Below, piece by piece: positions 25,836 through 36,406 of a stretch of 64,000 nt of DNA (the stretch's first letter is position 1; the number at the start of each line of letters is the position of its first letter). Source of the DNA: Oscillospiraceae bacterium (GTDB lineage: Bacteria; Bacillota; Clostridia; Oscillospirales; Oscillospiraceae); contig SVKQ01000001.1 in NCBI GenBank assembly GCA_015068325.1, positions 1-64,000 of the forward strand, written 5' to 3'. The position numbers and the translations under genes were made by a program. The notes beneath the pieces were generated by a model. It was not told the origin of the DNA, did no database searches, and saw only the letters and a list, made by a program, of their open reading frames with translations.

Positions 25836-27326
25836 CTATTCTTTCGCGTTTTTGTAAATTTCACAGGCGATGTTGTTCATCGCTTCGTCGGCTGCTTCCG
25901 TGACGTTGTTGTACATCACGGCAACGCAGATGTCTTTCTTGCGGGAAAAGACCCAGCTGGTCAGAAAACCCCAGTTCTCTCCGCCGTGGCCGGCCACGCT
26001 GTCTTTGCGGGCTTCCGATTCCCAAACGTCGAGGCAGAGCCCGTAGCCGTCCAGCACCGGCGTCATCATGCGCCGCGCGGTCTTCTTTTTGAGGAAGCCG
26101 CCCCGGCGGTAGCTCCTGGAGAGGGCAAGGCCGATCTTGACAAGCTCTGTGGGCGTCGTCCACAGACCGGCAGCGGCGTGCTCGGGATAGTAATGGTAAC
26201 CGTGGGCGGGATCCTCCTTCTGCGCCAGCCTGAAGCCGAACGCTGCGTTGGAAACCAGCTCTTCGTCCAGCGGCTGGAAAAAGCCGGTGCGCTGAAGGCC
26301 CAAAGGCTCGGCGACCTCCTTCTGGAAGGCCTCGCGGAGCGCGGTCCCCGTAATGCGTGTAAACGCAAGCTCGGCCAGGGTGATGCCGCCGCCGGAGTAC
26401 ATGTGCTGTTTGCCGTAAGGACGAATCCTTCTGAGCTTCGGCGTGACGCCCTTGCCGTTCAGCACGTCTTCGAGCGAGAGCGGCTCGTGATCCGCACGGT
26501 AGCCGGGGAAGCCGTGCAGGTTGTAGCCCGCCGTGTGGCTGAGCAGGGCGGCAAAGGTCACGGGGCCCTTCTTGACGAATTCCGGCACCACGCCCGAGAT
26601 ATCCGCGTCAAGGTCGATGAGCCCCTTGTCCACGTACCGCAGGAGGGTCAGCGCAAACATGGGTTTCGATACGGAACCCGCCTGGAACAGCATATCCGGG
26701 TTCACCGGGAAGTCCTCGCCATAGCGTCCGCTGCCGGCACAGTAGGTGAGGAAATCACCGTCTCCGGCCTGGACGGCAATGCTGACGCCGTAGCCCCTTT
26801 TGCCCTTGATGCGCATGGCCTTATCCACATCGACGCCATAGACATTCTTGATGATCCGGTTGGGGCCTTTGAGCATCCGCATCAGCACAGCCTCATCGCC
26901 ATCGATGATGCCGGTCTCCCGGAAGCCCGCTTTATGATAAACGTGCAGGCCCAGCTCGTTCTCCGGCTCGGTGGAGAGGAAAAGCCGGTCCGCGCCGTTT
27001 TCTTTGAAGTATTTGATGATCTCCTGCAGGGCGGCCTGGCCGTAACCCTTGCCCTGCTCGTTCTTGTCGACCATGAAGCGCCAGAGCCAGTAGCGGTCGT
27101 CCTCATCCTCTTCTTCCGGATTGAATGCGAACATGCAGAAGCCCACCAGCTTCTCATCTGCATAGATGGCAAAGGGCCGGGCCACGCCGGCCTGCTCCGC
27201 GTTCGCCTCGTCCGCCTGCCGCAGTGAGACGTCGTTCGGGGCGACGAAGGGCTGATCCTCCCGCACGGAAAGAGCCAGAACGGCTTCTCTGTTATTATCA
27301 TTGATCGGTTCCAGTTTAATTATCAT
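25836..27326 (-). CDS. GNAT-beta-lactamase-like serine hydrolase fusion
   Basis: A 496-aa two-domain protein. Residues 1-152 are a GNAT acetyltransferase (LWRFMVDKNEQGKGYGQAA). Residues about 160-496 are a class C beta-lactamase/esterase-like domain with the S-x-x-K motif SVSK (218-221), the YSGGG segment at the Tyr-motif position and HGGENWG at the third motif. No signal peptide, so it should act in the cytoplasm, unlike true beta-lactamases. Possible roles are modification or hydrolysis of amide/ester compounds. AAGGAGAAAA precedes the ATG. Confidence 0.88.
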   Translation of the reverse strand: MIIKLEPINDNNREAVLALSVREDQPFVAPNDVSLRQADEANAEQAGVARPFAIYADEKLVGFCMFAFNPEEEDEDDRYWLWRFMVDKNEQGKGYGQAALQEIIKYFKENGADRLFLSTEPENELGLHVYHKAGFRETGIIDGDEAVLMRMLKGPNRIIKNVYGVDVDKAMRIKGKRGYGVSIAVQAGDGDFLTYCAGSGRYGEDFPVNPDMLFQAGSVSKPMFALTLLRYVDKGLIDLDADISGVVPEFVKKGPVTFAALLSHTAGYNLHGFPGYRADHEPLSLEDVLNGKGVTPKLRRIRPYGKQHMYSGGGITLAELAFTRITGTALREAFQKEVAEPLGLQRTGFFQPLDEELVSNAAFGFRLAQKEDPAHGYHYYPEHAAAGLWTTPTELVKIGLALSRSYRRGGFLKKKTARRMMTPVLDGYGLCLDVWESEARKDSVAGHGGENWGFLTSWVFSRKKDICVAVMYNNVTEAADEAMNNIACEIYKNAKE

Positions 27327-27679: not shown

Positions 27680-28126
27680 CTATTGTCGCCTCAATTCTAA
27701 CTCCCGGTTTATTCTTTCTGCCAGATTCTTTTGCCGGCGATAGGAAAAAACTGAAATGACAAATGCCGTCAAGAGCATGGAAACAACCGCCAGAAGCGCA
27801 GGAAGCAGGCCTTTATCTGTCGGGATCCAGCCGACGAGAAAAGCGATTGTCAACATGATCGCGCAGCCAGTCACCATGTGAATCGCAATCTGCACGGAAC
27901 GGCTTAGCTTTTCGTTGGTGTAAATGATACAAGGAAGGCCGAATCCGAGGCCGATCCCCAAGCTGCCGAGAGCCATTTTGGTGACGGAATAACCGGAAGC
28001 GGAATAGACGCCGCCCATGTTCAGATCGGCAATCAAGGAGCCGAGCAGAAACAGGAAAGAGGAGATCGCCACCGTTGTTTTGGTACGCTGGACTAAAAAT
28101 ACGATACTATCTTTCTTCTTCATCAT
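27680..28126 (-). CDS. DUF3021 family membrane protein
   Basis: A 148-aa protein with four hydrophobic segments and a basic C-terminal tail, as in DUF3021 proteins that pair with LytTR regulators. It follows the LytTR gene by 8 bp. These pairs resemble LytTR regulatory systems where the membrane partner inhibits the regulator; that role is inferred. The start has TAGGAGGAATC. Confidence 0.82.
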   Translation of the reverse strand: MMKKKDSIVFLVQRTKTTVAISSFLFLLGSLIADLNMGGVYSASGYSVTKMALGSLGIGLGFGLPCIIYTNEKLSRSVQIAIHMVTGCAIMLTIAFLVGWIPTDKGLLPALLAVVSMLLTAFVISVFSYRRQKNLAERINRELELRRQ

Positions 28127-28134
28127 GATTCCTC

Positions 28135-28569
28135 CTATAATCCCAAATAGTTTTTAAGATCAGGCAAGTACTTTCGGGAAACGTAATCAGACAGCCCGTT
28201 TCTCATTTTCAGGAGCAGACTTCCCCCGAAACTAGCTTCCACGCTTTGTACATAAGAAAGGTTGACGGCGCAGGATTTGGATATCTGCATGAAGCCGCTG
28301 CCCACCTGATCCAATACTTCATACAAGCGTTTTCGCGTCCTGAACTCTTCCTTTTTCGTATAGAGCTTTGTTTCCCCGCCCACTACCCGGATCATGTAGA
28401 CCTCCTGCTCTGAAAGAAGGAACGTACGTCCGTCACGCTCCGCCAGGACAGGGGTGTCCTTTGCCTGCAATATGTCCAAAGCCCGTTGTATCTCCGGGGT
28501 TATTCGATCCGTATAAATGACCGCCCGCGGAGGCGTGTGCTCCGGCGAGACTTCAATCTTGACCTGCAT
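28135..28569 (-). CDS. LytTR-type DNA-binding regulator
   Basis: A 144-aa stand-alone LytTR protein. The C-terminal half has the family pattern (YMIRVVGGETKLYT, FMQISKSCAVNLSYV, KMRNGLSDYVSRKYLPDLK). The start at 28569 (MQVKIEVS) has AAGGGGATC; a longer upstream frame has no site. The dyad at 28586-28600 lies 17 bp upstream and may be its own operator. Confidence 0.85.
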   Translation of the reverse strand: MQVKIEVSPEHTPPRAVIYTDRITPEIQRALDILQAKDTPVLAERDGRTFLLSEQEVYMIRVVGGETKLYTKKEEFRTRKRLYEVLDQVGSGFMQISKSCAVNLSYVQSVEASFGGSLLLKMRNGLSDYVSRKYLPDLKNYLGL

Positions 28570-28585
28570 AAGAGATCCCCTTTCT

Positions 28586-28600
28586 TGTTGAGTGCACATC
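28586..28600. promoter_or_regulatory. Dyad near the LytTR start
   Basis: TTGAGTGCACATCAA, arms TTGA/TCAA around GTGCAC. Its place just ahead of the ribosome site suggests an autoregulatory operator. Confidence 0.4.
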
Positions 28601-28775
28601 AACTTAGATGAGAACAGTATAATCGGGTAAATATCGTTTGTCATCTGTTTGGCGCTAAGAGGTAAATAATTGCAGGTGAAATGCAAGGACACCCCTGCCA
28701 AAGCAAAACATGACGGATGCGTCATATTATGGTATAAAATAGGGCGGTGGAGATTTCTCCCTACCGCCCGGTACA

Positions 28776-29153
28776 TTATGCATAAATCAGATCGTTGTTC
28801 ACAACCTCCATAGCTCGATTCCGAATGTTGTTCATCCGCTGTAGCCACAGCATTTGATCCTGGACCTTAAGTTGTTCTGTGACGCCTTCACGGGCCGCCA
28901 TCTGCTTAACCAGCTCAAGAAACATTGTCTCGGCTTGCTCGTTCAGATCGGCAAGATAAGCGTTCAGCGTGCCGGAGGTCAGCAGCTCCGTGTACAGCGC
29001 CTTACGGTGCTGCCGGAGATACCGCAGATGCCGCTGACCCCAAGCGCCGATGGGCCTTTGTTCTTCAGCGGGCAGCTTCAAACATGGAACGAAATAATTG
29101 CCTTGCAGCTCATACCAAAGTCCGTTCTTTTCGTCGTAGATGTGTTTTTCCAT
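28776..29153 (-). CDS. TnpV-like transposon protein, copy 1
   Basis: A 125-aa protein of the TnpV type known from Tn4451-like Clostridia elements. Signature segments are NGLWYELQG, GAWGQRHLRYL and QMLWLQRMNNI. GGAGGATTACATC precedes the ATG at 29153. Function unknown. A second copy lies at 51663. It marks mobile DNA. A hairpin (GGGCGGT/ACCGCCC) follows the stop. Confidence 0.85.
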   Translation of the reverse strand: MEKHIYDEKNGLWYELQGNYFVPCLKLPAEEQRPIGAWGQRHLRYLRQHRKALYTELLTSGTLNAYLADLNEQAETMFLELVKQMAAREGVTEQLKVQDQMLWLQRMNNIRNRAMEVVNNDLIYA

Positions 29154-29214
29154 GATGTAATCCTCCAAATTTGATTGATTCCTGCAATTCAATCACTCTG
29201 GCTGATTACAAAAG

Positions 29215-29264
29215 CCCCAAGGGAGGCAACTTCCTTACGAAGTGCCTCCCTTGGGGGCCGTCTT
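29215..29264. terminator. Terminator hairpin with GTAAGGAAG loop, copy C
   Basis: CCCCAAGGGAGGCA pairs with TGCCTCCCTTGGGG; the loop on the minus strand reads CTTCGTAAGGAAG. The plus side ends in a T-run. It lies just 3' of the sirtuin gene. Confidence 0.7.
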
Positions 29265-29291: not shown

Positions 29292-30209
29292 TCACTGCAG
29301 GTCCCGGATGATTTGGCCGATGTCGCCATCAATGCAGATGGACCGGTCCGCGATGGCGGAGGGGCAGGCCGCGTCACCGTAGTTGAGGCAGGCGTAGGTA
29401 GCCTCTGGATTCCGGGCCGTCATCTGCCAAAAGGGGTACTTGATGATGCCGGGGGTGTTATAGCCCACGCCCAGTTCCAGATACAGCACCCGGCCGCCCC
29501 GGGTGCGCAGGAAGTCGGCATAGCGCTCCGCGGCGGCGTGCCAGCCCTCGTCCTCTGCAAAGGTGTCGTCGGAGCGCAGATTCATGCGCATGGGCTTGCT
29601 GCAGACGGGACATCGGGGGACCAACTCCGTGGGCACTGTCATCCGGAGCTGCGCACCCTCCGGGACCGTCAGTGCGCCGTTGTCTCCCACGGTGAAGCCC
29701 TGGGCCATGACCATCTGCCGGACGGCTGACTCGTTGTCGTAGGTCTTCCGGTGGCAGGGCTCGCTGCACTGCCACAGGCCGTAGTCGCCTTGAGTGTAGA
29801 AGAGGCGCTTCTTGTCGAAGCCGGCCTTCTGGAAGCAGTGGTCCACGTTGGTGGTGAGGACGAAATAATCCCTGTCCTGCACCAGCGCCAGCAGTTCCCG
29901 ATAGACGGGCCTGGGCGGGTCGGTGTAGCGGTTGATGAAGATATAGCGGCTCCAGTAGGCCCACAGCTCCTCCGGGGTGGAGAAGGGATAGAAGCCGCCG
30001 CTGTACATGTCCCGAAAGCTGTATTTGGCGGCAAAATCGGAAAAATACCGCTGGAACCGCTCTCCGCTGTACACATAGCCGGCGGAGGTGGAGAGCCCGG
30101 CACCGGCACCGATGACCATCGCGTCGGACGCTGCCAGTGCCTGACGCAGCTGATCGATCTTATCCGAGGATGGCCCGGTAGATCTGTTCATCGGTTTCGC
30201 TGAAAACAT
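29292..30209 (-). CDS. Class M (SirTM-like) sirtuin
   Basis: A 305-aa Sir2-fold protein of the macrodomain-linked class. GAGAGLSTSAG (NAD site, about 34-44), TTNVDH (about 118-123) and Cys pairs (CSEPC, CPVC) that would bind zinc are present. SirTM enzymes transfer ADP-ribose to a protein, in other bacteria a GcvH-like lipoyl carrier. No GcvH-L or lipoate ligase gene lies nearby. Here the gene overlaps the macrodomain gene by 50 bp and ends the peptide-maturase operon. A start at 30191 (MNRSTG) is also possible. The domain ends in IGQIIRDL near the stop, so no truncation. Confidence 0.87.
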   Translation of the reverse strand: MFSAKPMNRSTGPSSDKIDQLRQALAASDAMVIGAGAGLSTSAGYVYSGERFQRYFSDFAAKYSFRDMYSGGFYPFSTPEELWAYWSRYIFINRYTDPPRPVYRELLALVQDRDYFVLTTNVDHCFQKAGFDKKRLFYTQGDYGLWQCSEPCHRKTYDNESAVRQMVMAQGFTVGDNGALTVPEGAQLRMTVPTELVPRCPVCSKPMRMNLRSDDTFAEDEGWHAAAERYADFLRTRGGRVLYLELGVGYNTPGIIKYPFWQMTARNPEATYACLNYGDAACPSAIADRSICIDGDIGQIIRDLQ

Positions 30210-30936
30210 TGAAGATCACCTCGATCGAATGGTTGTGTTCTGCCCGGCAGGCCCGAACCGTCTCCACGGCGATTTCCGCCGCCCGCCGCCGGGGAAAGCC
30301 GAACACGCCGGTGGAGATACAGCAGAAGGCGACGCTTTTCACATTGTGCTCCGCCGCCAGCGCCAAACAGGCGCGGTAACAGGAGGCCAGCTGCGTCTCC
30401 TGCTCCGCCGTCGCCGTCCCGCCGCCGACGATGGGCCCCACGGTGTGGAGCACATACCGGCAGGGCAGGTTGTAGGCGGGCGTGATCTTGGCCTGGCCGG
30501 TGGGCTCCTCGTATCCCTGCGCCTCCATGAGCTCCGCGCAGGCGCTGCGCAGCTGGATCCCCGCGTAGGTGTGGATGCAGTTGTCGATGCAGTTGTGGCA
30601 AGGCTGGTAGCAGCCGGTCATGCCGCTGTTGGCAGCGTTGACGATGGCACCGCAGCGCAGCGTGGTGATGTCGCCGCGCCACAGGTAGAAGCCCGGCTCC
30701 ACAGGGGTCAGGTCCGACAGCTCTGTCACGCCCTTTTCGGCGATGGCCTCCTGCAGATATGCGTCCTGCACAGCGGCAAACTCGCTGCCGATGGGGCGGG
30801 GCGGGCGCACGTTCATCAGCGAGCGCAGCAGATCCTTCTGTCCCTGCCGGTCATCCGGCACGGCGATGCGGCCGAAGCGGGGCTCCTCCCGCAGGAGCTC
30901 CTGGATCAGGAAAATTCGTCTCTCAGCCTGGTTCAT
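30160..30936 (-). CDS. Zinc-type macrodomain ADP-ribosyl hydrolase
   Basis: A 258-aa protein with a helical N-terminal lead of about 85 residues and a macrodomain. The ADP-ribose site begins IVNAANSGMTG. The following CYQPCHNCIDNC cluster and later STGVFGFP match the Zn-macro group linked to SirTM sirtuins. Such proteins remove ADP-ribose from the sirtuin's target. The start overlaps the upstream reductase gene by 14 bp. Confidence 0.9.
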   Translation of the reverse strand: MNQAERRIFLIQELLREEPRFGRIAVPDDRQGQKDLLRSLMNVRPPRPIGSEFAAVQDAYLQEAIAEKGVTELSDLTPVEPGFYLWRGDITTLRCGAIVNAANSGMTGCYQPCHNCIDNCIHTYAGIQLRSACAELMEAQGYEEPTGQAKITPAYNLPCRYVLHTVGPIVGGGTATAEQETQLASCYRACLALAAEHNVKSVAFCCISTGVFGFPRRRAAEIAVETVRACRAEHNHSIEVIFNVFSETDEQIYRAILG

Positions 30937-31888
30937 GTCGATCCACCCTTATCACGATCTTGCCGTTGACACCGCCCGCGTCCTGGGCGGCTGCGGCACA
31001 CGGTATCTCCTCCAGATCATACACCCTGCCGACGGCGGGGACAAGCCTCTTTTCCCGCAGGAAGGCGAAGATCTCATCCATGATCGTCTGGGTGGGGTAG
31101 TTGGAGAAGAAGCCGGTAAGATAGACGCCGTTGGGGATGTCCTTGATGGGGTCAAACCCGTTCAGCGCATAAACGCCGCCCAGCAGACCCGTCTGGCAGA
31201 CGATACCGCCCTTTTCCACGGAGGTGAGCGTGTCCTTCAGATCGCGGGGACCGATCAAATCAAGGGCTTTTGTAATGCCATGTACTTTGCCGGTCAACTT
31301 GCCGTCGTCGAGCACGGCTTCATCCGCTTCCGCGATCAGCGCCAGCTTGCTCTCCCGATGTGTCGTGGCGATCACGCGGCTGCCAAGCGCTTTTGCGATC
31401 TGTATCGCGGCATAGCCCAGCGCACAGGTGGCGCCGCGGATCAACAGCGTATCGTCTGCGGTCAGGCGCAGGCACTCGAACAGCGAGCCCCACGCCGTGA
31501 ACCAGGTTTCCGGCACCGCGCCCAGCACCTCCCAGGGCAGGCCGCTCTCCACCGGGAACACGATCCGGCGGGGCAGCAGCGCATATTCGGCGTAGCTGCC
31601 GTGGAAGGAACGGCCCATGCCGCCCATCAGCGCGACAACTTTCTGCCCGGCGGCTAGGCCGCTGTCGGAGGGGTCGGCGATCTCGCCGACACATTCGATA
31701 CCGGGGATGATTGGCTTCCGGATGTAGTCGGCCCGGATCTCATGCAGCCGCAGCAGCTTTTCGGAATGGTTCAGCCCGAAGGCCTTGACCCGTACCAGTA
31801 CCCAGCCGGGACGGACTTCGGGGGTCGGAACTTCGGACAGAACGACGTCCTTACCTTCTGTAATCCTGTTAAGCAATACAGCCTTCAT
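30923..31888 (-). CDS. Zinc-binding-dehydrogenase-type quinone oxidoreductase
   Basis: A 321-aa medium-chain reductase: N-terminal GroES-like domain with FGLNHSEKLL and PGIECVG, then an NADP-binding Rossmann domain (LGYAAIQIAKALG at about 155). No catalytic zinc Cys is apparent, matching the NADPH:quinone reductase branch. It overlaps the upstream radical SAM gene by 20 bp and the downstream macrodomain gene by 14 bp, so it is embedded in the same operon. Start with GGAGGAAAT. Substrate unknown; it could act on the peptide product. Confidence 0.85.
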   Translation of the reverse strand: MKAVLLNRITEGKDVVLSEVPTPEVRPGWVLVRVKAFGLNHSEKLLRLHEIRADYIRKPIIPGIECVGEIADPSDSGLAAGQKVVALMGGMGRSFHGSYAEYALLPRRIVFPVESGLPWEVLGAVPETWFTAWGSLFECLRLTADDTLLIRGATCALGYAAIQIAKALGSRVIATTHRESKLALIAEADEAVLDDGKLTGKVHGITKALDLIGPRDLKDTLTSVEKGGIVCQTGLLGGVYALNGFDPIKDIPNGVYLTGFFSNYPTQTIMDEIFAFLREKRLVPAVGRVYDLEEIPCAAAAQDAGGVNGKIVIRVDRHEPG

Positions 31889-32957
31889 CTTTTATTTCCT
31901 CCGTTTTCGGCGTCAGCAGACCGGTTTCCTCGCTGGCCCAGCACTGCGGGTCATCGCCGTAAAAATCGCCGGTATAGCCTTTTGCCACGGCGGGACAGCC
32001 GCGGCAGAATTGTTTCAGTTTACAGCGGGAGCACTTGGAGAACGCATCATACTTGCGATAGGCTTCCATGCCGGTGATCCAAACATCCGCGAGGCGGTCC
32101 TCAAAGATGTTTCCGACCTTGCTCTCCGCTGCGCGGCGGCAGGCGTAGATATCGCCGGTGGGGAGGATCGTAATGTGGCAGTTGCCGCAGTTGCAGCCGC
32201 CGTAGATCATGCCGTCGCAGGTGTAGGCCGGGAGCTGGAATGCCCCGGTCTCATACTCGTACAGCGTCCAGAGATGGTCTTTTTTGCTGAAATAGGTGCC
32301 GCAGCCCTCTGCCTCGTACTCCCGGAATTTCTGATCGCAAATGGCCAGCAGGTTCCGGTACTCCTGCGGCGTCATGGAAGTGTCCAACTCGCCGCCGGAG
32401 GGAACGTACCGGGAGAAGGCGAAGATGTTGGCGCCGGCCTCTGCCACGGCGTCGATGATGCCGGGCACTTCCATATAGTTCTGCTTGGATACCGTGGTCA
32501 TGATGACGCTGCGGATGCCGGCCCGGTTGATGCAGCCGATCTTCTCCAGCGTGCAGTCAAAGCTGCCGGGCTTGCGGAACCAGTCGTGGGTCTCCCGCAG
32601 GCCGTCCAGCGAGAGCTGATATTTCTGACAACCGAAAAACTTCAGCTCACGGCAGACCTGGTCGTTCAAATGAAAGGGGTTGCCCATGATCGTGAAGGGG
32701 ATCTCATGCGCATGAAACAGTTCCAGCAGCCGCCAGAAATCCGTGTGCAGGATCGGGTCGCCGCCGGTGAGATAGAAATAGGGCAGACGGTCGTAGACCG
32801 CGCAGAAGTCCAAACAGTTGTAGAAAGTGTCCTCCATCTGCTGCCAGGTCATGCTGTCCAGCTTCCGGCAGGGATCCCCGGAGAAGATATAGCAGTGCCT
32901 GCACCGCTGGTCACATTCATCTGTGATATGCCATTGAAAAGAGAAATACGGTTTCAT
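31869..32957 (-). CDS. Radical SAM/SPASM peptide maturase, ACGX system
   Basis: A 362-aa enzyme. The CxxxCxxC [4Fe-4S] motif is CDQRCRHC (Cys 15, 19, 22). GGDP (SAM binding) follows. C-terminal SPASM cysteines occur in CGNC, CSRCKLKQFCRGC and after. Such enzymes modify ribosomally made peptides. The 50-aa ACGX-repeat gene 80 bp upstream is the expected substrate. The ATG at 32957 has AAGGACG; an in-frame Met at 32978 lacks a site. A strong hairpin lies between peptide and enzyme genes. Confidence 0.9.
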   Translation of the reverse strand: MKPYFSFQWHITDECDQRCRHCYIFSGDPCRKLDSMTWQQMEDTFYNCLDFCAVYDRLPYFYLTGGDPILHTDFWRLLELFHAHEIPFTIMGNPFHLNDQVCRELKFFGCQKYQLSLDGLRETHDWFRKPGSFDCTLEKIGCINRAGIRSVIMTTVSKQNYMEVPGIIDAVAEAGANIFAFSRYVPSGGELDTSMTPQEYRNLLAICDQKFREYEAEGCGTYFSKKDHLWTLYEYETGAFQLPAYTCDGMIYGGCNCGNCHITILPTGDIYACRRAAESKVGNIFEDRLADVWITGMEAYRKYDAFSKCSRCKLKQFCRGCPAVAKGYTGDFYGDDPQCWASEETGLLTPKTEEIKDEGCIA

Positions 32958-33005
32958 TGCCTTCGTCCTTTTATCCATAACCGGCCAGGCCGGATCATTT
33001 TGTTG

Positions 33006-33030
33006 TCCCGGCGGAGAGCCTCCGCCGGGA
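33006..33030 (-). terminator. Attenuator hairpin between peptide and maturase genes
   Basis: TCCCGGCGGAG pairs perfectly with CTCCGCCGGGA around AGC. There is no long T-run, so read-through is likely. This would give more peptide than enzyme transcript. Confidence 0.7.
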
Positions 33031-33037
33031 GAAGGGC

Positions 33038-33190
33038 TTACTTGTCGGCCGCGCCGCAGGCAGCGGGAGCCTCGGCAGCACCGCAGGCAGCGGGGGCCTC
33101 GGCGGGCTTGTCGGCAGCACCGCAGGCAGTGGCGGGAGCGGTCTCCTCATCCTTCTTCTTGCCCCATCCGAACAGATCAGAAAGTGCCAT
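33038..33190 (-). CDS. ACGX-repeat ribosomally synthesised peptide precursor
   Basis: A 50-aa peptide: leader MALSDLFGWGKKKDEE, then Ala-rich sequence with three ACGA units (Cys 23, 36, 45) separated by Asp/Glu/Lys/Pro. This is the ACGX-repeat family, modified by the adjacent radical SAM enzyme. AGGAGG stands 8 bp ahead of the ATG at 33190. The three Cys are the probable modification sites. The mature structure and activity are not known. Confidence 0.9.
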   Translation of the reverse strand: MALSDLFGWGKKKDEETAPATACGAADKPAEAPAACGAAEAPAACGAADK

Positions 33191-33241
33191 GGTCATATCC
33201 TCCTTTACGGTTGTCAAAGAGATGTCCTCTCTGCATATTTC

Positions 33242-33269
33242 ATTATACGGGCGTCCGGCGGGCGCACAA
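33242..33269 (-). promoter_or_regulatory. Promoter of the ACGX operon
   Basis: On the minus strand TTGTGC, 16-bp spacer, TATAAT, 50 bp before the peptide start. Confidence 0.7.
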
Positions 33270-33275
33270 GTACGC

Positions 33276-33304
33276 ACTTTTTTATGCGTGGGTTATAAAA
33301 AAGT
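33276..33304. promoter_or_regulatory. Operator-like inverted repeat between hxlR and the peptide operon
   Basis: ACTTTTTTAT and ATAAAAAAGT, perfect 10-bp arms 9 bp apart, just upstream of both divergent promoters. A likely binding site for the adjacent HxlR protein. Confidence 0.55.
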
Positions 33305-33311
33305 AACTGTC

Positions 33312-33340
33312 TTGCCAGACGGCCGCATGTGCGGTATACT
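33312..33340 (+). promoter_or_regulatory. Promoter of the HxlR gene
   Basis: TTGCCA and TATACT with a 17-bp spacer, 43 bp before the ATG. Confidence 0.65.
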
Positions 33341-33383
33341 GACGAATGTAACATTCTTTTGGAAAGTAACGGAGGGTACAGGC

Positions 33384-33719
33384 ATGTTGACGAGGGAAGA
33401 ATTGCCGGATTGCCCGGTGGCCACCACCGTGCAGCTGATCGGGAACAAGTGGAAGCTGCTCATCATCCGCAATCTGCTGGGCCGTCCGTGGCGGTTCAAC
33501 GAACTGCACAAGAGCCTGGAGGGCATCAGCCAGAAGGTGCTGACCGACAGCCTGCGCCAGATGGAGGCGGACGGGATCATCACCCGCACCGTCTACCCGG
33601 AGGTCCCGCCCCGGGTGGAGTACGCCCTGTCGGAGCTGGGCGAGAGCATGCGTCCGATCCTGGACGCCATGCAGACCTGGGGAAACGGCTACAAGGCGCA
33701 GCGGGAGCAGGACGACTGA
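33384..33719 (+). CDS. HxlR family transcriptional regulator
   Basis: A 111-aa winged-helix protein. The CPVATTVQLIGNKWKLLIIR N-terminus, with the Cys near residue 9, is the family hallmark; the Cys can be redox-sensing as in YodB/QorR. It is divergent from the ACGX operon, which includes a quinone-oxidoreductase-like gene. Control of that operon is likely. The ATG at 33384 has GGAGGG. A strong terminator follows. Confidence 0.92.
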   Translation: MLTREELPDCPVATTVQLIGNKWKLLIIRNLLGRPWRFNELHKSLEGISQKVLTDSLRQMEADGIITRTVYPEVPPRVEYALSELGESMRPILDAMQTWGNGYKAQREQDD

Positions 33720-33833: not shown

Positions 33834-35981
33834 TCAGGGAAGCTCCCATTCGCTGCCGGTCAGCGCGGAGCGGGCGTCCTGCTCCGTGAGGGAGGAGATG
33901 GAGTTCAGCTCCTCGCCGTCTTCGCTGAGGACCAGCTGTCCGTTCCGAACGGCGATGTCGAAAAAGTGCTCCGCGCCGGTCTGGGTCACGCCCAGCACCT
34001 GGGGATGGCCGTGCTGCTCCGTGAAGCGCAGGTCGTACCAGTCGCTGTGGAAGATGCCGACGTACTTTATCTGGCCGTCCACCCGGGCGGCCATGGTAAA
34101 GGTGAACAGACCGGAGGTGGGACCGAAGCCCAGAGAGCAGGTCTCCGTGACGCCGTCGCCGTCCACGTCGAAGCGCAGGACATCATACCCGTCCTCGTAA
34201 TAGTGACCCTCATGGCGCATGTTCTCCGGGTACTCGCCGCCGGCATAGGTCTCGTCCCGCAGGAGCAGGGTGTTGCCATCCAGCGCGGCCGTCAGGGGGA
34301 AGGAGTTGTGCAGCACCACGATGTGGTAATCCATGCCGTTTTGCGTCTCGCCCCAGTAGGTGGGAGTGCCCTGCACATCGATTTCCAGCGACTGGCCGTC
34401 CCGTTCGCCGCCCTGCAGATACAGGGTGAAGGTGACGGCACTGCGGCGCGGTGTCGCGCTGTCCCAGGCGGGCGGCGTCCAGATGATCCGGGAGCCGGAG
34501 AGGACGGCGGCGCGGCCCGCGACGGTGGACCCGCTGCCGTTGGTGGTGTCCATCTGCGTGAGGGGCGGTGTGCCCCGGTTCAGGGTGCCGCTGAAGTAGC
34601 TGATGTCCACGGCGTCGCAGCCCAGCTCCGGTGCCAGCATCAGGAAAGGGGGCATTTTGTCGTTCCCGTAGCGGGGCTGGTGCCAGGTCAGCGCTTCGGC
34701 GGGCAGGACGGCGCGGAGACAGTCGGCCAGCTCCCGACTGCGGATCAGCGTCAGCTGCCCCTCATACGACAGCTCCACCTGATCCTCGCTACCCTCCGGC
34801 AGAGAGAGATAGATCCCCTCGGGGAAGTAGAGACTGCAGCCCTCCGGTGCCTCGATCCGGAAGCCGCCTTCGGTCAGCTGATCGGTATCCAGCTGCCGCA
34901 GCAGGGCACTCAGCGTCCGCTGCTGCTGCTGATCCAGCGCGCGGGCATAGTAGGCAGCGCCGCCGGAGCCGCTGTAGTAGACCAACAGCTCCGCGTCGCT
35001 CAGCCGCCAGGAAGTGCGGGTGCGCAGCCAGTGGGGACCGTCCTTCACCGGCGGATCGGTCAGGAAGCAGACAGCCGTCACCACCAACGCCAGCACCGCC
35101 AGCAGCACCAGCCAGAAGGCGGGCTTTTTGTAGTGGAGGGCGCCCTTGATCCGCTGGCCCACCCGCAGCTCGCCGAAGGCCACGGGGCACACGGCGGCGG
35201 TGCGGCGGGGCGCGGCGCAGTGCAGCAGCGCCGCGGAGTAGCGTCGGCGGCCCTCGTCATCCAGCGCGCGGAGCACCCGCTGGTCGCAGGCGTACTCCAT
35301 ATCGCGGCAGAAGAGGATATAGGCGGCCCACAGCAGCGGCTGGAACCAGTGGAGGGCCAGCAGCACGAAGGCCAGCACCTTCCACACGTGGTCGCCCCGG
35401 GCGATGTGGGCGCGCTCGTGGGCCGCCACCTGGGCCAGCGTGTCGCCGTCCATGCGGAAGGGCACGTAGATGCGGGGACGCAGCAGTCCCAGCACGAAGG
35501 GGGAGTCCACCCACTCGCTCTGCCACAGACCGTCCGGCGAGCGGACGGCGGTGCGCAGACGGAAGCGCAGGTGCAGGTACGTGCCCAGGCAGTAGAGCCC
35601 CAGCAGGGCGGCACCGGTGATCCAGATGACCGCCAGCAGATCCGCCGTGTGGGCCGCCGTGCCCGCCGGCACGGTGACGCCCTCGTAATAGACGCTCTGG
35701 AGATACTGCTCCACCTGCGTGTTCACCGCCGGGATGCCGGTCTCGATGACCGGACGGGCGGCGTGGAGGGAGCCGGGCACGATGGTCTGGGCGCTGGGCA
35801 CCAGACTGAAGCTGCTGGGAATGGAGAAGGGCAGCGCCAGCCGCGCGGCCACCACGCCCCACAGGGTGCAGTGGATCCACCGGGGCGCCCTGCGCAGCAG
35901 CAGCCGCAGGACGACCACCGCCAGCACCAGCCAGCCGGCGGTCACGGCCCGGTTCACAAAGCCCAGAAATACGGTGTTCAT
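33834..35981 (-). CDS. BlaR1/MecR1-like M56 membrane metalloprotease
   Basis: A 715-aa integral membrane protein. Residues 1-310 hold membrane helices and the zinc protease motif HERAH (HExxH, near residue 195). The C-terminal 390 residues are an external sensor region without clear beta-lactamase motifs. BlaR1 proteases cleave the BlaI repressor on sensing a signal. The ATG overlaps the blaI stop (ATGA). With no penicillin-binding motif, the sensed signal is probably not a beta-lactam, but this is inferred. Confidence 0.88.
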   Translation of the reverse strand: MNTVFLGFVNRAVTAGWLVLAVVVLRLLLRRAPRWIHCTLWGVVAARLALPFSIPSSFSLVPSAQTIVPGSLHAARPVIETGIPAVNTQVEQYLQSVYYEGVTVPAGTAAHTADLLAVIWITGAALLGLYCLGTYLHLRFRLRTAVRSPDGLWQSEWVDSPFVLGLLRPRIYVPFRMDGDTLAQVAAHERAHIARGDHVWKVLAFVLLALHWFQPLLWAAYILFCRDMEYACDQRVLRALDDEGRRRYSAALLHCAAPRRTAAVCPVAFGELRVGQRIKGALHYKKPAFWLVLLAVLALVVTAVCFLTDPPVKDGPHWLRTRTSWRLSDAELLVYYSGSGGAAYYARALDQQQQRTLSALLRQLDTDQLTEGGFRIEAPEGCSLYFPEGIYLSLPEGSEDQVELSYEGQLTLIRSRELADCLRAVLPAEALTWHQPRYGNDKMPPFLMLAPELGCDAVDISYFSGTLNRGTPPLTQMDTTNGSGSTVAGRAAVLSGSRIIWTPPAWDSATPRRSAVTFTLYLQGGERDGQSLEIDVQGTPTYWGETQNGMDYHIVVLHNSFPLTAALDGNTLLLRDETYAGGEYPENMRHEGHYYEDGYDVLRFDVDGDGVTETCSLGFGPTSGLFTFTMAARVDGQIKYVGIFHSDWYDLRFTEQHGHPQVLGVTQTGAEHFFDIAVRNGQLVLSEDGEELNSISSLTEQDARSALTGSEWELP

Positions 35982-36349
35982 TCGGATGCACCTCCCTCAT
36001 GGCTGTCGATCAGACGGCGCAGCGCCTCCACCTCCGCCTCGGTGAGCTTTTCCCGGCGGGCAAAGGCCGCCACGAAGGCCGGCAGCGACCCCTCGAAGGT
36101 GCGCTCCACCAGCCCGTCCAGCTCGGCGGCCTGGGCCTCCTCCTTGCTGACCAGGGCGGTGACGGTGGCGCACTCGTTCTTCACCACGCCCCGCTCCGCC
36201 AGGCGGCGGATCACCGTGTAGGTGGTGGCCTTGGACCAGCCCAGCCTTTCCCGGCACAGCCGCACCAGCTCGGTGCTGTTCACCGGCTCGTGCTCCCACA
36301 GGATCAGGCAGAAGCGGTACTCGCTCTCAAAGATTTTCGGTGTCGGCAT
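35978..36349 (-). CDS. BlaI/MecI family repressor
   Basis: A 123-aa winged-helix repressor (ESEYRFCLILWEHEPVNSTELV, GWSKATTYTVIRRL). It pairs with the BlaR1-like protease. GGAGGGG precedes the ATG at 36349. Its dyad operator overlaps the -10 (36407-36423), so autoregulation is expected. Confidence 0.92.
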   Translation of the reverse strand: MPTPKIFESEYRFCLILWEHEPVNSTELVRLCRERLGWSKATTYTVIRRLAERGVVKNECATVTALVSKEEAQAAELDGLVERTFEGSLPAFVAAFARREKLTEAEVEALRRLIDSHEGGASE

Positions 36350-36406
36350 GGGACACCCCTCCTTATACCCAAAAGGTCGAATCAATTAAACCCATCTGTC
36401 GGGACA

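What the first reader, a model, noticed from the sequence alone, without database searches (positions are those of the whole stretch)
29292..33719. ACGX peptide-maturase operon fused to a sirtuin-macrodomain ADP-ribosylation pair
A three-unit ACGX peptide, its radical SAM/SPASM enzyme, a quinone-oxidoreductase-like gene, a Zn-macrodomain and a SirTM-like sirtuin run in one direction. The last four genes overlap (20, 14 and 50 bp). SirTM-macro pairs are known mainly with lipoyl carrier genes, which are absent here. Overlap suggests ADP-ribosylation may control, protect or modify the peptide pathway. I do not recall this combination being described.
Basis: partly seen in the sequence, partly recalled or inferred. 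Interest (0 to 1): 0.9.

Follow-up and report, generated by a model that had tools for sequence, protein, structure and literature searches.

The report
Redox peptide operon with ADP-ribosylation pair
A stress-type operon seen again and again in Clostridia puts a cysteine-repeat peptide and its radical SAM enzyme beside a protein-tagging sirtuin and the macrodomain that removes the tag, which offers a concrete candidate for the unknown target of these sirtuins outside the lipoate system.

Summary
Confirmed: ACGX peptide, ACGX radical SAM/SPASM maturase, MDR quinone-oxidoreductase-like gene, Zn-macrodomain and SirTM run on the minus strand (overlaps 20, 14, 50 bp), divergent from a one-cysteine HxlR regulator. 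In a class-wide draw all 16 genomes with an over-cut-off ACGX maturase hold a SirTM, against 52 of 375 others; 13 of 16 have it adjacent. Linkage changes at least 8 and 11 times on the two trees, persists across oxidoreductase types, and comes with a conserved HxlR-type operator. The known SirTM substrate route, lipoyl-GcvH-L, is unlikely: 22 of 27 linked genomes lack an LplA/LipB-type enzyme. I found no paper describing it in the held library. Unproven is the acceptor. Best reading: the matured, cysteine-rich peptide replaces lipoyl-GcvH-L as the thiol carrier that SirTM tags and the Zn-macrodomain restores. Alternatives: the partner oxidoreductases, or co-regulation only. Against: most SirTM genomes lack ACGX, and one ACGX-SirTM genome has no Zn-macrodomain match. 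A second kind of extended SirTM operon: a new variant of known parts.

The parts
33384..33719 (+). HxlR-family regulator, divergent, with one Cys, in a CPVATT motif
   Evidence: PF01638 110 bits; RrpB redox-regulator model 121 bits, below its cut-off 175; a CP...T motif in 94 of 96 ACGX-locus HxlRs
33292..33307 (-). distal operator-like site GTTAC-N6-ATAAC
   Evidence: read; a site within 3 mismatches of GTTACAAAAAGGTAAC in 76 of 100 ACGX loci scanned; of the 64 loci with both sites the spacing is 25 or 26 bases in 62
33268..33282 (-). core operator-like site AAAAAGTGCGTACTT overlapping the -35 box
   Evidence: within 2 mismatches in 85 of 100 ACGX loci scanned; the only exact copy in the held genome
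33242..33269 (-). putative promoter of the peptide operon: TTGTGC - 16 - TATAAT
   Evidence: read directly; matches the consensus of aligned loci; not tested, and not listed by the scan
33038..33190 (-). ACGX precursor peptide, 50 aa, three ACGA units
   Evidence: TIGR04341 44.1 bits, cut-off 28
31869..32978 (-). ACGX radical SAM/SPASM maturase, 369 aa
   Evidence: TIGR04340 566.6 bits, cut-off 400; PF04055, PF13186
30923..31888 (-). MDR-family NAD(P)H quinone-oxidoreductase-like enzyme, 321 aa
   Evidence: PF08240, PF00107, PF13602; TIGR02824 135 bits, below cut-off; overlaps the maturase gene by 20 bp
30160..30936 (-). Zn-macrodomain (protein-ADP-ribose hydrolase), 258 aa, CxxxxHxC motif
   Evidence: NF003163 350.7 bits; aligned over 1-257 with 8rsi; overlaps the MDR gene by 14 bp
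29292..30209 (-). SirTM-class sirtuin, 305 aa, TNVD and QGDYG (Gln where other sirtuins have His)
   Evidence: phmmer to 5a3a 234.6 bits; motif counts in linked loci; overlaps the macro gene by 50 bp
29214..29227 (-). weak terminator-like stem after the operon
   Evidence: consensus match only

Best explanation
A redox/electrophile-stress operon. Step 1 (inferred from family and operator): the one-cysteine HxlR regulator represses the operon through the operator over the -35 box until its cysteine is modified by a quinone, aldehyde or disulfide stress. Step 2 (inferred from family): the maturase modifies the Cys-Gly units of the ACGX peptide to give a thiol or thio-heterocycle redox carrier. 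Step 3 (inferred): the partner oxidoreductase, MDR here and nitroreductase plus PNPOx-ferredoxin elsewhere, passes reducing equivalents from NAD(P)H or ferredoxin to or through the carrier. Step 4 (inferred): SirTM mono-ADP-ribosylates the matured peptide at its Cys or the neighbouring Asp/Glu, holding it off, and the Zn-macrodomain removes the tag when stress comes. The peptide thus plays the part that lipoyl-GcvH-L plays in the Streptococcus/Staphylococcus extended operon, and MDR or the flavoproteins the part of OYE/LLM. Shown here: the genes, their recurrent clustering, the shared operator, one-way co-occurrence, and lack of lipoate enzymes in most tested linked genomes. Sub-confidences: recurrent functional unit 0.95; SirTM acting independently of lipoate in these genomes 0.85; peptide as the direct acceptor 0.4.
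For: Linked downstream in 59 of 92 informative loci of 114 distinct ones, 22 being cut off; loci were chosen by the maturase alone. Class draw: 16 of 16 ACGX genomes have a SirTM match against 52 of 375, 13 of 16 adjacent; 10 of 10 genera against 36 of 213. Family draw: 34 of 36 against 113 of 364. The relation is one-way: ACGX nearly always goes with SirTM, not the reverse. Linked with each oxidoreductase type: MDR only 10 linked and 7 not, MDR plus flavoprotein 8 and 3, NTR/PNPOx-ferredoxin 41 and 23, so peptide and maturase are the constant partners. At least 8 (SirTM tree) and 11 (maturase tree) label changes are forced by well-supported branches; reversed pair order in 2 loci, L122 and L154. 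LplA/LipB domain absent from 22 of 27 genomes with the pair beside ACGX, 20 of the 22 at least 92% complete. Genome G341 (92% complete): its only Zn-macro match lies in the ACGX operon, and its SirTM stands without a macro neighbour elsewhere, about 108 bp behind an exact copy of the operator core. Zn-Macros are reported as the only known hydrolases of the Cys-ADP-ribose bond (PMC11490716, passage), and the peptides hold at least 3 Cys-Gly units (found by rule in 103 of 114 loci).
Against: No direct evidence of ADP-ribosylation of the peptide. 113 of 147 SirTM genomes in the family draw have no ACGX maturase, so the pair has other work too. The same operator core also precedes solo SirTM loci, 4 of 18 in ACGX genomes and 7 of 37 in others at <=2 mismatches, so co-regulation alone could bring them together. 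In 33 of 92 informative loci the pair is not downstream. In 14 of 59 linked loci only one of the two genes was found, and G244 has SirTM in its ACGX locus but no Zn-macro match in the genome, which does not fit a reversible switch. In GcvH-L the likely acceptor is Asp27, not Cys (PMC4518038 passage). The window's own genome carries GcvH and LplA elsewhere.
Confidence: 0.42

Rival explanations
1. SirTM and the Zn-macrodomain act on another protein of the operon, the oxidoreductase, the maturase or the HxlR regulator, and not on the peptide; they throttle the pathway rather than tag the carrier.
For: OYE, an operon oxidoreductase, interacts with GcvH-L in the known system (PMC4518038 passages). 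PNPOx-ferredoxin-like matches also stand upstream of SirTM in 15 of 60 loci without adjacent ACGX.
Against: The oxidoreductase differs (MDR, or NTR plus PNPOx-ferredoxin) while the link to peptide and maturase stays. 44 of the 60 non-ACGX SirTM loci show no MDR, NTR or PNPOx-ferredoxin match upstream, though 11 of the 60 were cut short there.
Confidence: 0.22
2. Co-regulation only: ACGX cluster and SirTM/macro pair belong to one HxlR stress regulon and cluster for joint expression; the SirTM target is elsewhere in the cell.
For: The same operator core lies before ACGX operons (85 of 100) and in the 4 kb before some other SirTM loci (11 of 55 scanned at <=2 mismatches); HxlR paralogues about 60% identical stand near some of these.
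Against: The one-way co-occurrence, 16 of 16 class-wide, is stronger than shared regulation needs; the split pair in G341 keeps the eraser in the ACGX operon.
Confidence: 0.25
3. Chance neighbours or passive hitch-hiking on one mobile segment.
For: The ACGX locus is sporadic: 1 of 32 genomes of the genus, the window's own, has it over cut-off, and a TnpV gene lies directly behind the operon.
Against: 59 of 92 loci, repeated gain or loss on both trees, reversed pair order in two loci, distant SirTM in L146 and L153, and overlapping genes.
Confidence: 0.03
4. The pair still acts on a lipoylated protein; the host has a GcvH (contig C19) and an LplA (contig C16).
For: Both families are over cut-off in G000, and in 3 more of the 27 linked genomes (G368, G391, G244).
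Against: 22 of 27 linked genomes show no LplA/LipB domain; GcvH and LplA are on other contigs in G000; Zn-Macro from a minimal operon (MorMacro) could not demodify GcvH-L (PMC11490716, passages).
Confidence: 0.05
5. Toxin-antitoxin or defence use: SirTM as an ADP-ribosylating toxin and the macrodomain as antitoxin, by analogy to DarT/DarG (analogy recalled).
For: Eraser upstream of writer, with overlap in 39 of 43 measured macro-SirTM neighbours.
Against: No PADLOC model matched macro or SirTM at E<=0.01; G244 has SirTM without any Zn-macro match in the genome.
Confidence: 0.03

Closest known systems
Extended SirTM operon of Lactobacillales and Staphylococcaceae (GcvH-L / Zn-Macro / SirTM / LplA2 with OYE and LLM; Rack et al. 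2015, PMC4518038)
   Same: Zn-macro then SirTM in tight overlap, with oxidoreductases; redox-stress setting; a modified carrier-type protein is plausible in both
   Different: No GcvH-L, LplA2, OYE or LLM in the locus; instead an HxlR regulator, a Cys-repeat peptide, a radical SAM maturase and MDR or NTR plus PNPOx-ferredoxin; 22 of 27 such genomes tested lack an LplA/LipB domain
Minimal Zn-Macro/SirTM pairs (PMC11490716)
   Same: Same two enzymes; such pairs are frequent in the same family of bacteria, some with the same operator core
   Different: Here the pair is part of a peptide operon
NCBIfam ACGX system (TIGR04340 maturase, TIGR04341 peptide)
   Same: Both models passed; same anatomy
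   Different: The models name peptide and maturase only; the nearly constant HxlR, the oxidoreductases and the frequent SirTM/Zn-Macro pair are added here
SbtM thio(seleno)oxazole maturase (TIGR04082; PMC11002830)
   Same: Second-best maturase model (153 bits); its Cys-containing substrate loses four hydrogens to give a thiooxazole
   Different: Far below the cut-off of 350; product chemistry of the ACGX maturase is unknown

Membership tests
ACGX peptide system | Maturase over TIGR04340 cut-off | tested here: met
   566.6 bits against 400
ACGX peptide system | Short peptide with ACG repeats over TIGR04341 cut-off, next to the maturase | tested here: met
   44.1 against 28 bits, three ACGA units
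ACGX peptide system | Peptide is actually modified at Cys-Gly | not testable with these tools
   needs mass spectrometry
SirTM (class M sirtuin) | Sequence kin of a solved SirTM, with Gln in place of the catalytic His | tested here: met
   5a3a 234.6 bits (its identity as SpySirTM is recalled); TNVD and QGDYG in the window; TN.D in 52 of 52 and QG[DEN]YG in 49 of 52 linked SirTMs of over 200 aa. The His-to-Gln exchange is from PMC11490716 passages; that it is this Gln is my reading
SirTM (class M sirtuin) | Genetic pairing with a Zn-macrodomain | tested here: met
   50 bp overlap in the window; macro>SirTM in 43 of 59 linked loci, SirTM>macro in 2, only one of the two found in 14
SirTM (class M sirtuin) | Protein ADP-ribosyltransferase without deacylase activity | not testable with these tools
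   needs an assay
Zn-Macro | Zn-loop Cx4HxC and N-terminal extension | tested here: met
   CYQPCHNC in the window; motif in 46 of 46 linked macros of over 200 aa; alignment 1-257 to 8rsi
GcvH-L/LplA2 extended SirTM operon | GcvH-L and LplA2 genes in the operon | tested here: not met
   none among the six operon-region proteins; in G000 the families match on contigs C19, C8 (weak) and C16, the window being C21
GcvH-L/LplA2 extended SirTM operon | OYE and/or LLM oxidoreductase | tested here: not met
   the operon oxidoreductase is MDR-type
SbtM thio(seleno)oxazole maturases | Over TIGR04082 cut-off | tested here: not met
   153 against 350 bits
HxlR/YodB-type thiol-redox regulator | HxlR fold, N-terminal conserved Cys, divergent target operon | tested here: met
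   PF01638; CP...T motif in 94 of 96; divergent HxlR in 61 of 65 and 29 of 33 loci with >=1.5 kb upstream. The YodB likeness is recalled
HxlR/YodB-type thiol-redox regulator | DNA binding lost on Cys modification by an electrophile | not testable with these tools
   needs a gel shift

The most novel reading that the evidence does not exclude
A ribosomally made, radical-SAM-matured Cys-repeat peptide is the substrate of a SirTM sirtuin: reversible ADP-ribosylation, on cysteine or a thio-heterocycle-bearing unit, switches a lipoate-free thiol carrier on and off. This would be the first doubly modified peptide of this kind that I know of, a second SirTM target, and a natural role for the Zn-macrodomain's ability to cleave Cys-ADP-ribose.
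Probability: 0.33. Interest if true: 0.92.

Novelty: new variant of a known kind. Interest (0 to 1): 0.78.

Why it matters
[quoted passage not shown] Here a second kind of extended SirTM operon, in at least 16 genus codes of the class sampled, comes with its own short candidate substrate, a maturase and a regulator. That makes the target question directly testable in vitro with four small genes, and would give the uncharacterised ACGX peptide system its first functional frame: regulated redox chemistry instead of an antimicrobial peptide.

Tried and rejected
Chance linkage: rejected by the counts. Lipoyl-GcvH substrate: disfavoured. Among genomes without LplA/LipB, the GCV_H matches were weak; two (G581 at 22.2 bits, G727 at 29.1 bits) reach the family's cut-off and I take them, untested, for biotin/lipoyl-domain kin, so the claim rests on LplA-B_cat. 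A basic patch in the macrodomain as a GcvH-L-binding marker: inconclusive. The loop has no Lys/Arg in the window but 1 to 4 in 38 of the 41 linked macros where the pattern matched; not used. Defence library: no model for macro or SirTM; I read the viperin matches of the maturase as generic radical SAM kinship. Peptide differences between linked and unlinked loci: read by eye, none seen; not tested. Literature: 'ACGX' with 'radical SAM' 0 papers, 'ACGX-repeat' 0, SirTM with macrodomain 14 papers, listing only apart from two, macrodomain/sirtuin/radical SAM/RiPP 3-of-4 gave 12, unrelated by title, SirTM/operon/Zn-macro/peptide maturase/nitroreductase 3-of-5 gave 2; for maturase chemistry. This covers only the held open-licence library. 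No structure prediction was run: a monomer model would not settle the acceptor. Papers: of PMC4518038, PMC11490716 and PMC11002830 I saw passages only; other papers listings only.
Full report
WHAT IS THERE. Curated models name the first four; SirTM is named from its nearest solved chain, 5a3a (recalled to be the S. pyogenes SirTM). The last four genes overlap by 20, 14 and 50 bp. The HxlR gene 33384-33719 faces the other way. The nearest solved macrodomains are 8rsi and 5kiv. Key motifs are present: CYQPCHNC for Cx4HxC, TNVD and QGDYG.

HOW OFTEN IT RECURS. Loci were chosen by the maturase alone. Six were exact duplicates, leaving 114 distinct loci. With a macro and/or SirTM hit on the same strand starting within 4.5 kb downstream as the criterion, 59 are linked, 33 are not although at least 4.5 kb is available, and 22 are cut off by contig ends. 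By sample: 47 of 64 informative in the scan, and 13 of 31 in the family sample before removing duplicates, where two more have the pair just upstream. The divergent HxlR is there in 61 of 65 and 29 of 33 loci with at least 1.5 kb upstream.

A WIDER TEST. In a draw of 391 genomes of the class, 16 have an ACGX maturase over the curated cut-off. All 16 have a SirTM match (in G768 only 44% identical), against 52 of the other 375 (Fisher 1.4e-13). Among genomes at least 90% complete and at most 5% contaminated it is 16 of 16 against 50 of 302; by genus, 10 of 10 against 36 of 213. The pair is adjacent in 13 of the 16; G051, G768 and G803 have it elsewhere (coordinates, neighbourhoods). Three further genomes have a below-cut-off maturase relative; these show no ACG peptide upstream and no SirTM (0 of 3). 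In the family draw the figures are 34 of 36 (E<=1e-80; 34 of the 36 over cut-off) against 113 of 364. I assume that the paired searches drew the same genomes, as their handles suggest. Family, class and scan samples share some contigs and are not independent, and Fisher tests ignore kinship. The relation is one-way: ACGX goes with SirTM, but 113 of 147 and 52 of 68 SirTM genomes lack an over-threshold ACGX maturase.

WHAT THE UNIT LOOKS LIKE. HxlR, peptide and maturase are followed by MDR and/or a nitroreductase (PF00881) plus a PNPOx/ferredoxin fusion (PNPOx_N with 4Fe-4S domains), then Zn-macro and SirTM. Gaps are operon-like, with starts chosen by script: maturase-nitroreductase overlap in 38 of 64, PNPOx-ferredoxin to macro <=25 bp in 26 of 34, macro-SirTM overlap in 39 of 43. 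The pair follows each oxidoreductase type, so the peptide and maturase are its constant partners. On the SirTM tree (112 rows, quick method) linked and solo need 26 changes, at least 8 forced by starred branches; on the maturase tree (111 rows) 21, at least 11 forced. Leaving 11 cut-off solo rows unlabelled did not change the 26. Labels are somewhat clustered (shuffled means 33.9 and 24.8). Two loci have the pair in reverse order (L122, L154), and two (L146, L153) hold a SirTM only 36-37% identical to the window's.

REGULATION. Upstream of the peptide lies a conserved element, GTTACAAAAAGGTAAC then AAAAAGTGCGTACTTG, followed by a -10-like box. The core is within 2 mismatches in 85 of 100 loci scanned; both sites in 64, at a spacing of 25 or 26 in 62 of these. 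In the window the core is exact at 33268-33282 (minus) and is the only exact copy in the held genome. The same core lies in the 4 kb before some SirTM loci without adjacent ACGX (<=2 mismatches: 4 of 18 in ACGX genomes, 7 of 37 in others; none in five letter shuffles of each locus that was listed). The HxlR has a CP...T cysteine in 94 of 96 loci. That this cysteine senses electrophiles is inferred from YodB-type kin (recalled). No minus-strand terminator-like site lies between the ends of the maturase and SirTM genes; two weak ones lie inside the maturase gene, and a weak minus-strand promoter-like site lies inside the MDR gene (31044-31016).

WHY NOT LIPOATE. The only SirTM substrate described is lipoylated GcvH-L (PMC11490716 and PMC4518038, passages). 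I tested 27 genomes with the pair beside the ACGX genes (two of them, G165 and G317, upstream). 22 show no LplA/LipB catalytic domain: 11 of 16 and 11 of 11, which also held three unlinked genomes, one of them with the domain. Of the 22, 20 are at least 92% complete; G409 (86%) and G075 (70%) are not. The window's genome does have GcvH and LplA on other contigs, so for it alone the lipoyl reading is not excluded.

MECHANISM. Zn-Macros are reported as the only known hydrolases of the S-glycosidic Cys-ADP-ribose bond and also act on Asp/Glu-linked ADP-ribose (PMC11490716, passages; its introduction adds that proof for the zinc's part was lacking). In GcvH-L the likely acceptor is Asp27. The peptides, found by rule in 103 of 114 loci, are rows of 3 to 13 Cys-Gly units with acidic residues close by. 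The nearest characterised maturase model, SbtM, makes a thiooxazole with loss of four hydrogens from its Cys substrate (PMC11002830 passage), but the window's maturase is far below that model's cut-off. I therefore propose a matured peptide as lipoate-free thiol carrier, with SirTM and Zn-Macro as its off and on switch. A telling case is G341 (92% complete): its only Zn-macro match is in the ACGX operon, and its SirTM stands without a macro neighbour elsewhere, about 108 bp behind an exact operator core. A contrary case is G244 (96% complete), with SirTM in the ACGX locus and no Zn-macro match.

VERDICT. A recurrent operon of known parts in a combination I found no paper for (searches; held library only). 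The substrate is the open point.

Noticed in passing
window 28779-29153 (-): A TnpV gene (PF14198, 158 bits) lies directly behind the operon; an ORF family that looks alike by eye occurs near 5 of the collected ACGX loci, L146 among them and perhaps the window. With 1 of 32 genomes of the genus holding ACGX, the locus may be mobile.
   Followed up: partly
window 25839-27326 (-): One 496-aa protein joins a GNAT acetyltransferase domain to a serine beta-lactamase-like domain.
   Followed up: no
window 33837-36385 (-): A BlaR1-type M56 peptidase gene and a penicillinase-repressor-type regulator adjoin the HxlR gene; no beta-lactamase was looked for.
   Followed up: no
window 27683-28848 (-): A DUF3021 gene next to a LytTR-domain regulator gene.
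   Followed up: no
L221 (G341:C13) and L176 (G341:C20): The SirTM/Zn-macro pair is split: macro in the ACGX operon, SirTM alone elsewhere with an exact copy of the operator core about 108 bp before the SirTM match.
   Followed up: partly
L189 (G244:C5): SirTM in the ACGX locus but no Zn-macro match anywhere in a 96% complete genome.
   Followed up: partly
L252, L255, L236, L224, L221: SirTM or SirTM/macro loci without adjacent ACGX carry the operator core (0-1 mismatch) just before the first gene of the pair, which suggests an HxlR stress regulon for these pairs beyond ACGX.
   Followed up: partly
L299, L300, L301: Maturase relatives 36-37% identical to the window's have neither ACG peptide nor SirTM near; their target is unknown.
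   Followed up: no
L227, L232: Two SirTM-like stretches in tandem behind one macro gene; the first one in L232 (G172) has an in-frame TAG.
   Followed up: no
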